Shown one piece after another: positions 40,702-63,666 of a stretch of 64,000 nucleotides of DNA. This stretch comes from Lachnospiraceae bacterium. GTDB taxonomy: Bacteria > Bacillota > Clostridia > Lachnospirales > Lachnospiraceae. The stretch covers positions 1 through 64,000 of the forward strand of contig JAFUKH010000088.1 of the NCBI GenBank assembly GCA_017467845.1. The letters are read 5' to 3'. Numbering within the stretch: the stretch's first letter is position 1; the number at the start of each line of letters is the position of its first letter. Position numbers and translations under genes: made by a program. Under the pieces are notes generated by a model that saw only the letters and a program-made list of their open reading frames with translations, did not search any database and was not told the origin of the DNA.

Positions 40702-40802
40702 AACGGTTTCGGTTTCTGCCTTTTCCTTGATTTTGGACATATGTGATGTTTGTTGCATAGGAGCGCCCAATAAATATACATGAAAAATACCTGAAAATAT
40801 AG

Positions 40803-40831
40803 TTGACAGTAAATGTATTGTAGAGTATATT
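40803..40831 (+). promoter_or_regulatory. Sigma-A promoter of Rpn unit 1
   Basis: Consensus -35 TTGACA (40803-40808), 17-bp spacer, -10 TATATT (40826-40831). The same hexamers and spacing precede the other two units. The predicted start of transcription coincides with the first base of the conserved leader. Confidence 0.85.
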
Positions 40832-40836
40832 ATAGT

Positions 40837-40965
40837 AAAGTGAATGTCTGGGAACCGATCTTGCAGCACGGCTGCATTCTAAAATTCATGGCGATTCTGC
40901 CGCGGTCAGGGAATCCTGCTTATTTCACAAAAGAAAAGTGCAGGCATGGCCTGCGGAAAGGAATT
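40837..40965 (+). ncRNA. Conserved 129-nt structured leader of Rpn nuclease unit 1
   Basis: First of three leaders of identical length and nearly identical sequence. It begins at AAAGTGAAT where transcription should start. Possible helices: GTGAA (40840-40844) with the TTCAC just before AAAAGAAAA, closing about 90 nt; TGCAGC-ACG-GCTGCA; ACCG with CGGT; CAGG-GAAT-CCTG or an alternative GGG/CCT pairing; and a last hairpin GCAGGC-ATG-GCCTGC just before the GGAAAGGAA Shine-Dalgarno. Differences from the other copies fall mostly in the ACG loop and in the last hairpin, where this copy has the fully paired 6-bp stem. It could be a regulatory leader or a separate RNA working with the nuclease. No known riboswitch class recognised. 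The rest of the 40702-40802 gap shows nothing clear. Confidence 0.65.
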
Positions 40966-40969
40966 ACAT

Positions 40970-41926
40970 ATGGGAGAGTTGAATGCGGTAGATTATAAGT
41001 ATTTATCGGATAATTCACGCTATGCGGATTTGTTTAATGGAGTGCTGTTTGGTGGTGAACAGGTCCTTATTCCTGATAAGCTTACGGGAGAGGATACAAA
41101 ACTGGTTACAACCAATGAAACGGTATGGAGAGAACGTAGTAGGGACCTAATCAGGAAATATGAAAATGGTGCGAGCTACGCAGTACTGGGGATTGAAAAC
41201 CAGGAGAATGTGTCTTATATCATGCCGTTTCGGATTATGGAGTATGAGGCAGGAGAGTATTCGAAACAGATTGAGGAGATGCAGAAAAAACATAAAGATT
41301 CCGGGGATGTGAGTGGAGACGAGTTTCTTTCAAAGTTTGCTAAGACAGATAAGGTAAATCCCTGTGTGACGTTGGTGCTGTATTGGGGAGAGAACTGGGA
41401 TGGTCCGGAATCCTTGAAGGATATGCTGAATCTAGGAGGACTACCGGAGCAGATGAAGGCATATGTAAATGATTATCCTATGCATTTGGTGAATGTAAGG
41501 GAATTTGAGAATACGGATGTATTTCGGACGGATTTGAAGCTTGTGTTTGACTTTATGAAATGTGCCGAGGATAAGAAATGCATGACAGAGCTGGTGGTGG
41601 GCAATCCGGCATACCAAAGAGTGCCGCGGGATGCGTGGAAGATGATGCAGGTTCATGGGAAGTTGGAGGAACCGAAAGTGGATGCGGCAGAGGATGAAGA
41701 AGAGGAGGCGATGGTAAACGTGTGCAGGGCAATCGATGATATTAAGAATGATGCAATGGAGCGTGGAATAGAACGTGGTAGAAGTGAGGGCTTGGAGATA
41801 GGTTTAAAGAATCTGGTGAAAGTATTGAAAGGACAGTGCAAAGGCTTTGAAGAATTGTACAATTCCTTGATTGGCATGGAGGGCTACGAAAGCCTCACCA
41901 GAGAACAGGTGAGTAAGTATGTGTAG
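40970..41926 (+). CDS. Rpn-type PD-(D/E)XK nuclease/putative transposase, copy 1
   Basis: 318 residues from ATG 40970; the in-frame ATG at 40946 lies within the leader hairpin. The N-terminal nuclease region (about 5-105) has the DLFNGVLFGGEQV segment and the YAVLGIENQENVSYIMPFRIMEY strand with the E-x-Q active-site motif of Rpn/PD-(D/E)XK proteins. A middle domain (about 130-220, PCVTLVLYWGENWDGP, DYPMHLVNVREFENT) and a charged C-terminal helical tail (ERGIERGRSEGLEIGLKNL) follow. Rpn enzymes cut DNA and promote RecA-independent recombination. It stands alone between csrA and flaG, splitting a flagellar block that is normally continuous, so it has probably inserted. Its tail matches copy 3 while its front matches copy 2. 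Confidence 0.8.
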   Translation: MGELNAVDYKYLSDNSRYADLFNGVLFGGEQVLIPDKLTGEDTKLVTTNETVWRERSRDLIRKYENGASYAVLGIENQENVSYIMPFRIMEYEAGEYSKQIEEMQKKHKDSGDVSGDEFLSKFAKTDKVNPCVTLVLYWGENWDGPESLKDMLNLGGLPEQMKAYVNDYPMHLVNVREFENTDVFRTDLKLVFDFMKCAEDKKCMTELVVGNPAYQRVPRDAWKMMQVHGKLEEPKVDAAEDEEEEAMVNVCRAIDDIKNDAMERGIERGRSEGLEIGLKNLVKVLKGQCKGFEELYNSLIGMEGYESLTREQVSKYV

Positions 41927-61314: not shown

Positions 61315-61343
61315 TTGACAGCATGAATACTAGATGGTATATT
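61315..61343 (+). promoter_or_regulatory. Sigma-A promoter of Rpn unit 2
   Basis: TTGACA (61315-61320), 17-bp spacer, TATATT (61338-61343). Spacer nearly identical to that of unit 3 but different from unit 1, while the hexamers are the same in all. Confidence 0.85.
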
Positions 61344-61348
61344 AAAAT

Positions 61349-61477
61349 AAAGTGAATGTCTAGGAACCGATCTTGCAGCAAGGCTGCATTCTAAACTTCA
61401 TGGCGATTCTGCCGCGGTCAGGGAGTCCTGCTTATTTCACAAAAGAAAAGTGCAGGCGTGACCTGCGGAAAGGAATT
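61349..61477 (+). ncRNA. Conserved 129-nt structured leader of Rpn nuclease unit 2
   Basis: Same length and order of helices as in unit 1. Relative to unit 3 it has three changes: TAGG for TGGG near the 5' end (would change a G-U to an A-U in the pairing with the CCTG element), AAG for GAG in the loop of the TGCAGC/GCTGCA hairpin, and GAGT for GAAT in the CAGG/CCTG loop. None breaks a proposed helix. It ends on the GGAAAGGAA ribosome site of the nuclease gene. Confidence 0.65.
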
Positions 61478-61481
61478 GAAA

Positions 61482-62426
61482 ATGGGAGAGAAGAATGCGG
61501 TAGATTATAAGTATCTATCGGATAATTCGCGATATGCGGATTTATTTAATGGAGTGCTGTTTGGGGGTGAACAGGTCCTTATTCCGGAGAAGCTTCTGGG
61601 GGAGGACACGAAGCTTGCCTTGACCGGAGGGACGGTGTGGAGAGAACGTGACAGGGACTTGATTCGCAAGTATGAAAACGGTGCCAGTTATGCGGTGCTA
61701 GGGATTGAGAATCAGGAGAATGTGTCATACATCATGCCATTTCGGATTATGGAGTATGAAGCAGGAGAGTACTCGAAGCAAATTGAGGAAATACAGAAAA
61801 AGCATGATACAGCGAGGGATGTTAAAGGGGATGAGTATATTTCACAGTTTGCTAAGGTGGATAAAATAAATCCCTGCGTAACGCTTGTGCTGTACTGGGG
61901 AACTAAGTGGAACGGACCGGAATCATTGAAAGATATGCTGAAACTGGAGGGAATGCCGGAGCGACTGAAAGACTATGTAAATGACTATCCCATGCATCTG
62001 GTAAGGGTAAGGGAATTTGAGAATACAGAAGTATTTCGGACGGATTTGAAGCTGGTGTTTGACTTTATGAAATGTACCGAGGATAAGAAGCTTATGACAG
62101 AGCTGGTGACAGGCAATCCGGCATACCAAAGGGTGCCTCTGGATGCGTGGAAGATGATGCAAGTTCATGGGAAGCTGGAGGACTTGAACGTGGATGTAGC
62201 AATGGATGAAGAAAAGGAGACGATGGTAAACGTGTGTAAGGCAATCGATGATATTAAGAATGATGCAATGGAGTTTGGCCGTGCAGAGGCGAGAGAAAGT
62301 GGTCTTAAGGCACTTGTGGATACCATAAAAGGAATCTATAAAGACTTCGAGGAACTATACACCAGGGTGGTAGCAAATGAGTGCTACAAAGATGTCACAA
62401 GGGAACAGGTGAAGAAGTACGTGTAG
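61482..62426 (+). CDS. Rpn-type PD-(D/E)XK nuclease/putative transposase, copy 2
   Basis: 314 residues from ATG 61482. Most of the chain (about 1-250) is closely similar to copy 1 (NAVDYKYLSDNSRYADLFNGVLFGGEQVLIP, YAVLGIENQENVSYIMPFRIMEYEAGEYSKQIEE), but the C-terminal tail (EFGRAEARESGLKALVDTIKGIYKDFEELYTRVVANECY) differs from that shared by copies 1 and 3. Same E-x-Q active-site strand. Placed just after the glycosylation island and followed by its own GGCTGTGTG-type terminator. Confidence 0.8.
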   Translation: MGEKNAVDYKYLSDNSRYADLFNGVLFGGEQVLIPEKLLGEDTKLALTGGTVWRERDRDLIRKYENGASYAVLGIENQENVSYIMPFRIMEYEAGEYSKQIEEIQKKHDTARDVKGDEYISQFAKVDKINPCVTLVLYWGTKWNGPESLKDMLKLEGMPERLKDYVNDYPMHLVRVREFENTEVFRTDLKLVFDFMKCTEDKKLMTELVTGNPAYQRVPLDAWKMMQVHGKLEDLNVDVAMDEEKETMVNVCKAIDDIKNDAMEFGRAEARESGLKALVDTIKGIYKDFEELYTRVVANECYKDVTREQVKKYV

Positions 62427-62548: not shown

Positions 62549-62577
62549 TTGACAGTAGAAATACTAGATGGTATATT
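62549..62577 (+). promoter_or_regulatory. Sigma-A promoter of Rpn unit 3
   Basis: TTGACA (62549-62554), 17-bp spacer, TATATT (62572-62577). Confidence 0.85.
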
Positions 62578-62582
62578 AAAAT

Positions 62583-62711
62583 AAAGTGAATGTCTGGGAA
62601 CCGATCTTGCAGCGAGGCTGCATTCTAAACTTCATGGCGATTCTGCCGCGGTCAGGGAATCCTGCTTATTTCACAAAAGAAAAGTGCAGGCGTGACCTGC
62701 GGAAAGGAATT
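62583..62711 (+). ncRNA. Conserved 129-nt structured leader of Rpn nuclease unit 3
   Basis: Third copy. Three differences from unit 2 and about five from unit 1 over 129 nt, although its nuclease gene is clearly divergent from both. Proposed helices as in unit 1, starting with GTGAA at the transcript start and closing with TTCAC, then an A-rich single strand and the GCAGG / CCTGC hairpin before the ribosome site. Confidence 0.65.
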
Positions 62712-62715
62712 GAAA

Positions 62716-63666
62716 ATGGGAGAGAAGGAAAGTAAGGATACGGTAGACTATGTCTATCTGTCTGATAATGAACGGTATGCAGATTTAATTAATGGCGTAC
62801 TTTTTGGAGGAAAGCAAGTGCTTAATCCCGCAATGCTGGAGGAAAGGGACAGTAGAGTGGTGGTATCTAAGAAAAAGACAAAAGCGAGGGATATCGTCCG
62901 CAAGTATGGTAAAGAGGCCGCGTATATGGTTCTTGGTGTGGAAAATCAGGAGGAGGTCAGCTACTGTATGCCCTTTCGAATGCTGCAGTATGAGACTGCT
63001 GAGTACGCAAAGCAGGTGAGTGCTGTAAGAAAGCGAAATAGGAATGTAAGAAAAGTCACAGCAGGGGAATTTCTGGAGAAATATAAGAAGGGTGACAAAA
63101 TTCAGCCCTGCGTGTCGTTGGTGCTCTTCTGGGGATCGGCTTGGGATGGACCGATGACGCTACAGGAGATGCTGGATATGGACGCAGTACCGAAATATCT
63201 AAAGTTTTACGTGAATGATTACGCCATGCATTTGGTAAATGTGCGGGAAATTGAGGACACCAGCGTATTTAAGACAGATCTGCGACAGGTGTTTGACTTC
63301 ATGAAGTGTGCCGAAGACATGGAAAAGGTACAGGAGCTGATAAAAGATAATCCGGATTATATGCATGTTGATATGGAAGCGTACGATGTAATGATGGTAC
63401 ACGGACACTCAGAAGTACTTGAGAGGATTCGTGAGAATGTGAAAGAGGAGGGCGGAAATGTGTGTAAAGGATTGACAGACTGGGGAAAACAGGAAAGAGC
63501 GTTGGGGCATGCAGAAGGTAGAAGTGAAGGTTTAGAGATCGGATTGAAGAATCTAGTGAAGGTATTGATAAGGCAGTACAAAGGTTTTGAAGAATTGTAT
63601 AATTCACTAATTGGGATGGAAGGATACGAAAATGTCACCAGAGAACAAGTGAAGAAGTATGTGTAA
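62716..63666 (+). CDS. Rpn-type PD-(D/E)XK nuclease/putative transposase, copy 3
   Basis: 316 residues from ATG 62716. Same fold as copies 1 and 2 but diverged over the nuclease and middle domains (TVDYVYLSDNERYADLINGVLFGGKQVL, YMVLGVENQEEVSYCMPFRMLQYETAEY, FDFMKCAEDMEKVQ). The last 50 residues (GRSEGLEIGLKNLVKVLIRQYKGFEELYNSLIGMEGYENVTREQ) are almost identical to copy 1. The E-x-Q motif is kept. It is the most divergent member yet has the same promoter and leader, and lies tandem to copy 2. Confidence 0.8.
   Translation: MGEKESKDTVDYVYLSDNERYADLINGVLFGGKQVLNPAMLEERDSRVVVSKKKTKARDIVRKYGKEAAYMVLGVENQEEVSYCMPFRMLQYETAEYAKQVSAVRKRNRNVRKVTAGEFLEKYKKGDKIQPCVSLVLFWGSAWDGPMTLQEMLDMDAVPKYLKFYVNDYAMHLVNVREIEDTSVFKTDLRQVFDFMKCAEDMEKVQELIKDNPDYMHVDMEAYDVMMVHGHSEVLERIRENVKEEGGNVCKGLTDWGKQERALGHAEGRSEGLEIGLKNLVKVLIRQYKGFEELYNSLIGMEGYENVTREQVKKYV

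What the first reader, a model, noticed from the sequence alone, without database searches (positions are those of the whole stretch)
40797..40969. A conserved promoter plus 129-nt structured RNA leader precedes every Rpn nuclease gene in the window
Three units (leaders at 40837-40965, 61349-61477, 62583-62711) share TTGACA-N17-TATATT and a leader of exactly the same length, differing at only about 3-6 of 129 positions, while the encoded nucleases have diverged to roughly half identity between copy 3 and the others. The RNA would start at the 5' strand of a closing GTGAA/TTCAC helix and contain a TGCAGC/GCTGCA hairpin, an ACCG/CGGT helix, a CAGG/CCTG element and a last GCAGG/CCTGC hairpin at the ribosome site. 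Differences lie in loops (ACG, AAG, GAG; GAAT, GAGT) or keep pairing (G-U to A-U). Non-coding sequence conserved more than the coding sequence points to an RNA with a function: a cis-regulator, or an RNA partner or guide of the nuclease. I know of no described riboswitch or transposon RNA with this sequence.
Basis: partly seen in the sequence, partly recalled or inferred. Interest (0 to 1): 0.88.

Follow-up and report, generated by a model that had tools for sequence, protein, structure and literature searches.

The report
Switch-like RNA leader before nuclease genes
DNA-cutting enzyme genes of several families in this group of bacteria begin with the same kind of folded RNA stretch, which probably holds back the making of the enzyme until it is needed.

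Summary
Three near-identical promoter-leader units precede three Rpn-type (PF04754) nuclease genes. Leaders differ at 3-6 of 129 positions; four-fold codon sites of the genes are 37-68% identical. Seven copies lie in this genome, two of them before TIGR01784-type Rpn genes, with compensatory changes. This exact leader was not found elsewhere. A related class with the same architecture was: promoter, closing helix at the inferred 5' end, UC-loop hairpin, and a strand 'c' that can pair upstream or with a strand next to the Shine-Dalgarno (SD) site. It occurs in 46 of 138 genus genomes and in other genera. Of 95 such leaders, 39 precede PF04754-like genes or remnants, 22 Uma2 and 21 another Rpn-like family. 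Covariation supports the closing helix, both hairpins and, more weakly, the alternative helix. The leaders scanned match no Rfam family. Best explanation: a cis-acting leader that represses translation of PD-(D/E)XK nucleases by switching folds; the trigger is unknown. Weak point: the class model does not recover the window's leaders; that link rests on shared anatomy, met by 7 of 7 own leaders and 1 of 68 control upstreams.

The parts
40803..40831 (+). promoter of unit 1, TTGACA-N17-TATATT
   Evidence: 11 of 12 consensus matches; the related leaders have such a promoter in 88 of 94 cases
40837..40969 (+). leader RNA of unit 1 (inferred transcript start to the base before the ATG)
40840..40844 (+). 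closing helix P1, 5' strand GTGAA (at the inferred 5' end of the RNA)
40924..40928 (+). closing helix P1, 3' strand TTCAC
40862..40876 (+). hairpin 1, TGCAGC-ACG-GCTGCA; compensatory changes in L005 and L006
40890..40901 (+). hairpin B, GGC-GATTCT-GCC (UC loop); GAC/GTC in three own copies; in the predicted minimum-energy fold it pairs with the ribosome-site region instead
40907..40918 (+). hairpin CAGG-GAAT-CCTG (invariant in the seven copies, so no covariation test); its 3' strand CCTGC (40915-40919) is the upstream alternative partner of strand c
40940..40944 (+). strand c, GCAGG: pairs with CCTGC upstream or with strand d
40950..40954 (+). strand d, CCTGC, next to the ribosome site
40958..40962 (+). 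Shine-Dalgarno AAGGA; 3 of its 5 bases pair with hairpin B in the predicted minimum-energy fold
40970..41926 (+). Rpn-type nuclease gene 1 (318 aa, PF04754)
61315..61481 (+). promoter and leader of unit 2
61482..62426 (+). Rpn-type nuclease gene 2 (314 aa, PF04754)
62549..62715 (+). promoter and leader of unit 3
62716..63666 (+). Rpn-type nuclease gene 3 (316 aa; PF04754 at 20.0 bits, just under the cut-off of 21)

Best explanation
The leaders are structured 5' untranslated RNAs that act in cis on translation of a toxic PD-(D/E)XK nuclease. Transcription starts at, or a few bases before, the 5' strand of a closing helix (P1). P1 encloses hairpin 1 and a UC-loop hairpin B. Downstream, strand c can pair either upstream (with b, the 3' strand of an upstream hairpin) or with d, the strand just before the Shine-Dalgarno (SD) site. 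When b:c forms, P1 is open, and either hairpin B (predicted for the window leaders) or strand d (in many related leaders) pairs with the SD region: translation is off or low. When P1 and the hairpins hold b, c:d forms and the SD is free. Shown by computation: the conserved parts; covariation of P1, hairpin 1 and hairpin B in the related class; complementarity of b:c and c:d beyond shuffles; SD-complementary strands before related genes; the promoter position. Inferred: that both folds form in cells, the direction of the switch, and the trigger (a protein, a small molecule or an infection signal).
For: Seven own leaders: compensatory changes in hairpin 1 and hairpin B. In 7 of 7 minimum-energy folds CCTGC pairs with GCAGG and P1 is open; in 4 of 7 (W1-W3, L005) hairpin B pairs with 3 of the 5 SD bases, in L004 and L006 hairpin B pairs mostly with bases just before the SD, in L007 it stays intact and the SD pairs elsewhere. 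Mean SD unpaired probability 0.22-0.36. The 137-nt folds of W2 and W3 score z -2.86 and -2.65. Non-coding. Related leaders: 46 of 138 genus genomes, 6 of 250 family genomes. P1 and both hairpins: 11 of 13 pairs with changes on both sides, 51 cells, 0 of 500 shuffles (alignment fitted to this structure). b:c, not part of that model: 94.8% of 639 cells paired, 34-58% when slid; helix of at least 7 bp in 84 of 95 against 12.8 with c shuffled. c:d: at least 7 bp in 67 of 80 against 23.2 shuffled. SD complement of 6 nt or more before genes of relatives: 21 of 61 PF04754-type, against 3 of 66 control genes and 1-4 of 65 with the segment shuffled. Promoter 7-17 nt before P1 in 88 of 94, against 75 of 6267 random windows. 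Full descriptor: 7 of 7 own, 75 of 95 class leaders, 13 of 54 other PF04754-type upstreams, 1 of 68 control upstreams, 33 of 1683 tiles.
Against: The class model R2 does not recover the window leaders (best on such a leader 9.5 bits, E 1.6), and the window model R1 finds no convincing relative (the hit L148 lies inside a coding gene). None of the five own upstreams that could be measured has an SD complement of 5 nt within 35 nt (3-4 nt). The 137-nt fold of W1 is only z -1.38. Over mixed leader types the b:c signal is weak (10 of 38 at p <= 0.05, mean z -1.28 against -0.63 for mismatched partners). In one search two of five measures do not exceed shuffles (pairs with double changes 299 of 500, further pair types 300 of 500). 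Only 12 of 78 class leaders have an SD complement of 6 nt or more, and 4 of 21 type-B upstreams. The descriptor is met by 1 of 25 type-B upstreams. Eleven of 95 class leaders have no recognised nuclease downstream. Folds are thermodynamic predictions; there are no expression data.
Confidence: 0.58

Rival explanations
1. Autoregulation: the nuclease, or its separately made C-terminal part (RpnS-like), binds the UC-loop hairpins of its own leader and blocks or opens the ribosome site. This is a specific form of the best explanation in which the trigger is the gene's own product.
For: Two hairpins in the class leaders; the hairpin-B loop ends in UC in 75 of 75 leaders whose stem fits GGCA/TGCC (of 95; the model that found them had such loops, so this is partly built in). 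Zhong et al. report that RpnL:RpnS ratios vary with how the genes are expressed and suggest additional regulation (PMC10327210; part of Results, Discussion).
Against: The same leader class precedes PF04754-like, Uma2 and other nuclease families, and in this genome PF04754 and TIGR01784 types share one leader, so recognition by one nuclease domain would not be specific.
Confidence: 0.2
2. A promoter-leader DNA cassette kept alike by recombination: it serves as a homology platform for shuffling nuclease and C-terminal modules, and the RNA fold has no regulatory role of its own.
For: Same leader on two nuclease families in one genome; the end of W1 resembles that of W3 more than that of W2 (last segment 0.82 against 0.62 nucleotide identity), and the W2-W3 promoter is 37/40 identical. 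Eleven of 95 class leaders have no recognised nuclease behind them (one of these, L186, runs off its contig).
Against: Compensatory changes in P1 and the hairpins across 93 distinct leaders, 0 of 500 shuffles; W1-W2 promoter only 27/40 identical while the leader is 123/129.
Confidence: 0.15
3. The leader is a trans-acting RNA: an antitoxin-like or guide RNA partner of the nuclease.
For: A compact structured RNA directly 5' of a nuclease gene, as in ToxIN-type loci (recalled; Fremin and Bhatt report ToxI-like candidates upstream of ToxN, PMC8040213, passages only).
Against: No terminator-like site on the + strand around leader 1 (only this leader scanned); one leader class serves several nuclease families; no repeat or spacer-like variable segment was noticed in the leaders read, though none was searched for.
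Confidence: 0.06
4. The leader encodes a small leader peptide and works by attenuation, or is simply part of a longer coding frame.
For: Two frames of W1 are open through the whole leader, and a frame is continuous with the gene in L007.
Against: In-frame stops in other copies and a 4-nt indel between copies; paired positions change in a compensatory way.
Confidence: 0.02

Closest known systems
Rpn (YhgA-like, PF04754 / TIGR01784) nuclease genes
   Same: The downstream genes: PF04754 for genes 1 and 2, borderline for gene 3; TIGR01784 for L007 and L228. Two own-genome copies, L006 and L007, differ by two four-residue repeats in the C-terminal part, a variation reported for Rpn proteins (PMC10327210, abstract).
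   Different: The known regulation is the antitoxin RpnS made from inside the gene. In the held main text of the 2023 preprint the words 'leader' and 'UTR' were not found; 'leader' and 'untranslated' were not found in the 2017 Rpn paper (PMC5350276).
Translational riboswitches and ribosomal-protein leader RNAs (recalled)
   Same: A compact 5' domain closed by a helix, a downstream strand with two possible partners, and an SD that can be masked.
   Different: No Rfam family matches the leaders scanned, no ligand is known, and the genes behind are mostly nucleases rather than metabolic or ribosomal genes.
ToxIN type III toxin-antitoxin loci (recalled; PMC8040213 passages)
   Same: Structured RNA directly upstream of a nuclease toxin gene.
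   Different: No tandem RNA repeats noticed; the RNA appears joined to the message at the ribosome site; it precedes genes of several PD-(D/E)XK-type families (fold membership recalled).

Membership tests
Rpn nuclease genes (the downstream genes) | PF04754 or TIGR01784 domain above the curated cut-off | tested here: met
   W1 23.9 and W2 22.3 bits against 21; W3 20.0, just below.: L007 61.9 bits against 52.1 for TIGR01784
Rpn nuclease genes (the downstream genes) | separately translated C-terminal antitoxin (RpnS) | not testable with these tools
   in-frame GTG codons at 41720 (W1) and 63460 (W3) lie about 8-11 nt after GGAGG (read by eye); no expression data
described RNA families (Rfam 15) | match to a covariance model | tested here: not met
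   Searches (window; 20 loci; 6 loci): no match on a leader
translational cis-regulatory leader RNA | conserved structure supported by covariation | tested here: met
   (class leaders strongly; own leaders 3 pairs with double changes)
translational cis-regulatory leader RNA | alternative pairing that can mask the SD | tested here: inconclusive
   searches support the pairings by sequence; weak over mixed types; in the own leaders SD masking by hairpin B is predicted in 4 of 7; no probing or reporter data
related leader class (R2) of this genus | window leaders recovered by the class covariance model | tested here: not met
   best on a window-type leader 9.5 bits, E 1.6 (five loci, one leader each, scanned with filters off; W2 and W3 not given)
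related leader class (R2) of this genus | promoter, closing helix at the inferred 5' end, UC-loop hairpin inside | tested here: met
   7 of 7 own leaders; 1 of 68 control upstreams; 33 of 1683 tiles
type III (ToxIN-like) RNA antitoxin | RNA released from the message, tandem repeats | tested here: inconclusive
   no + strand terminator-like site around leader 1; repeats were not searched for

The most novel reading that the evidence does not exclude
A fast-diversifying RNA switch class, defined by a 5'-end closing helix and UC-loop hairpins, is the common control element of several families of PD-(D/E)XK nucleases (PF04754-type Rpn, TIGR01784-type Rpn, a further Rpn-like family and Uma2). It would hold them as one silent regulon that a shared signal, for example phage infection or translation stress, switches on at the level of translation.
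Probability: 0.3. Interest if true: 0.85.

Novelty: new variant of a known kind. Interest (0 to 1): 0.73.

Why it matters
How Rpn nuclease activity is released is named as an unresolved question by the authors who described the internal antitoxin (PMC10327210 Discussion). A leader RNA that masks the ribosome site would be a second, RNA-level safety catch. Finding it on Uma2 and other nucleases too would tie gene families so far treated apart into one controlled set. It is directly testable with reporters, and the leader gives a handle to find further members.

Tried and rejected
Coding leader or leader peptide: rejected by stops and an indel. Known RNA family: none on the leaders scanned (the T-box, cobalamin and tRNA hits lie elsewhere in those loci). 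Finding the exact leader elsewhere by pattern: 0 viral contigs; 4 hits in genome contigs, judged chance since the window model gives them at most 8.7 bits; no match in plasmids or phages. R1 in relatives: own genome only, 1 of 99; in 250 family genomes the own genome plus two weak hits, of which L148 lies in a coding gene and L149 was only aligned. Class patterns in viral contigs: 0 and 1 hit, the latter antisense to a small phage-contig gene and judged chance. ACCG/CGGT helix: not conserved. PADLOC and solved structures: nothing useful. R2 in an order-level sample: 2 of 246, both in the own family.

In one search the group of 65 'A' upstreams held own upstreams and the 'B' group held one misfiled A upstream (L027); recounted for relatives alone it is 21 of 61 and 4 of 21 (6 nt or more).

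Rows left out: the 94 sources omit L136 and L138 (weak hits; no nuclease recognised next to them, b:c only 5 bp in L138) and places already included under another number (L133, L139, L147, L150, L153, L154, L157, L158, L159, L161, L174). The 95 leaders include the 12 used to build R2. In one search, 94 loci gave an upstream region; 17 others are listed there as giving none. The start of L027 was corrected by hand. Classes are best tblastn matches (E 1e-4) in up to 1.1 kb downstream, so they include remnants; the 'KDRLF' Rpn-like class was assigned by similarity to three proteins, of which only one was scanned against NCBIfam and scored below the cut-off of TIGR01784.

Literature searches: (listings). 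No report of these leaders appeared in those listings; most subscription papers and all supplements were out of reach, so this is not proof of absence.

Full report
What is there. The proteins match PF04754, YhgA-like/Rpn, weakly: genes 1 and 2 above the curated cut-off, gene 3 just below. Leaders differ at 3-6 positions of 129, while four-fold degenerate codon sites of the genes agree at only 60/88, 23/62 and 24/57. In the 150 nt on either side of the units there is no extended similarity, except one 67-nt stretch after the stop codons of genes 1 and 2 (74.6% identity). So the leader is far more conserved than the coding sequence. For units 2 and 3 the promoter region is alike too (37/40), so recombination may have contributed there; for unit 1 it is not (27 and 29 of 40).

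More copies in the genome. A DNA search found seven leaders. The four others are 78-82% identical over the aligned part. L007 and L006 precede genes of a different nuclease type (TIGR01784 above the cut-off for L007; PDDEXK_2 below the cut-off for both). L004 and L005 precede broken genes: L005 of the PF04754-like type, L004 of the second type (stops inside). One leader type therefore serves two nuclease types. In the alignment of the seven, hairpin 1 changes by C-G to U-A and A-U to G-C, and hairpin B by G-C to A-U, each on both sides. Frames are broken by stops and a 4-nt indel, so the leader is not coding.

Relatives. The window model R1 found no other genome among 98 relatives and nothing convincing in 249 other family genomes. 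I therefore looked at the upstream regions of the nuclease homologues in the genus. They carry diverged leaders of several types with common parts: a hairpin GGC-RNNTC(N)-GCY in 23 of 67 PF04754-type upstreams (shuffles mean 0.33, at most 2; 11 of 1834 other tiles) and 2 of 26 of the second type (shuffles at most 2); and a strand complementary to the Shine-Dalgarno (SD) sequence and its flank, 6 nt or longer in 21 of 61 PF04754-type upstreams of relatives and 4 of 21 of the second type, against 3 of 66 control genes. The flank changes along with its partner, for example AATCCTC/GAGGATT, ATTCCTC/GAGGAAT, TTTCCTC/GAGGAAA (read from the list). The window's own upstreams do not have this feature (3-4 nt in the five measured).

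The best-populated type. From 12 leaders (A5) a covariance model R2 was built. It hits 46 of 138 genomes of the genus, 6 of 250 sampled genomes of the family and 2 of 246 of the order, both in the family. Of 95 matches in 94 chosen sources, what follows is PF04754-like in 39, Uma2 in 22, a further Rpn-like family in 21, PDDEXK_2-like in 1, an unassigned family in 1, and not recognised in 11 (remnants included). In one other genus (G157) 6 of 7 leaders precede Uma2 genes (two tested against Pfam, the rest by similarity) and one a trypsin-PDZ protease. That Uma2, PF04754 and PF12784 share the PD-(D/E)XK fold is recalled, not tested here.

Structure of that type. On A7, 11 of 13 pairs of P1, hairpin 1 and hairpin B have changes on both sides (51 cells; 0 of 500 shuffles); this alignment was fitted to that structure. 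The alternative helix b:c was not part of the model: 94.8% of 639 cells pair, against 34-58% when slid; one pair outside hairpin B is A-U in 62, G-U in 16 and G-C in 9 leaders. Three of five measures exceed most or all shuffles (cells paired and doubly changed cells 0 of 500, score 8 of 500); two do not (299 and 300 of 500). In free register b:c reaches 7 bp in 84 of 95 (12.8 with c shuffled) and c:d reaches 7 bp in 67 of 80 (23.2 shuffled). A promoter lies 7-17 nt before P1 in 88 of 94, which places the transcript start at or just before the closing helix. The hairpin-B loop ends in UC in 75 of the 75 leaders whose stem fits GGCA/TGCC.

Do the window leaders belong? By the covariance model they are not recovered (9.5 bits, E 1.6). 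L137 from another genus scores on both models (30.4 bits with R2; 19.3 bits with R1) and has a window-like closing helix, which hints at a bridge. By anatomy (promoter, 4-15 nt, 5-bp closing helix, UC-loop hairpin inside) 7 of 7 own leaders qualify, with 75 of 95 class leaders, 13 of 54 other PF04754-type upstreams, 1 of 25 of the second type, 1 of 68 control gene upstreams and 33 of 1683 tiles. I take this as the same kind of device, with homology not proven.

How it probably works. In 7 of 7 predicted minimum-energy folds of the own leaders CCTGC pairs with GCAGG (b with c) and P1 is open. In W1-W3 and L005 hairpin B opens and pairs with 3 of the 5 SD bases; in L004 and L006 it pairs mainly with bases just before the SD; in L007 it stays intact and the SD pairs with other parts. 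Forcing P1, the hairpins and c:d together costs 3.8-19.9 kcal/mol in these predictions. The simplest reading is a translational off-switch whose on-state needs P1 and its hairpins, perhaps stabilised by a bound factor. Which state dominates in cells, and the trigger, are unknown. A leader that throttles the full-length toxin but not an internally started C-terminal antitoxin would fit the report that the two are made in different ratios and that further regulation is likely (PMC10327210: abstract and introduction, part 1 of Results, Discussion, passages).

Novelty. No Rfam family matches the leaders scanned. Text searches listed no paper on such leaders; the passages seen of PMC8040213, PMC11109978 and PMC5350276 do not mention them. 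Supplements and most subscription papers could not be searched. The kind of device is known; the class and its tie to several nuclease families appear new.

Noticed in passing
L006 599-1477 (-) and L007 1640-2488 (+): Two near-identical Rpn genes of this genome (97%) differ by two four-residue repeats (EGRQQGIEQGMEQGIEQGF against EGRQQGIEQGF), the kind of repeat variation reported for Rpn proteins.
   Followed up: partly
41700-41722 and 63445-63462: In-frame GTG codons shortly after GAGGAGG inside nuclease genes 1 and 3: candidate internal starts for an RpnS-like C-terminal protein (read by eye).
   Followed up: no
41780-41926 and 63510-63666; L005 1731-2282; L004 1015-1335 (-): C-terminal parts look exchangeable: genes 1 and 3 share nearly the same C-terminus although the whole proteins are 56% identical, and the two C-terminal types seen in the genome occur behind both nuclease types (read).
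   Followed up: partly
L144 1501-1585 and gene at 1616-2998: One class leader in genus g94 precedes a trypsin-PDZ (HtrA-like) protease instead of a nuclease.
   Followed up: no
L205, L213 (before a membrane protein), L208, L191 (before coiled-coil repeat proteins): Class leaders before genes that are not recognisable nucleases; capture of the cassette or remnants of lost nuclease genes.
   Followed up: no
L231 490-1263: An Rpn-like gene of the window's genome with a TTGACA box upstream but no leader of the window type.
   Followed up: partly
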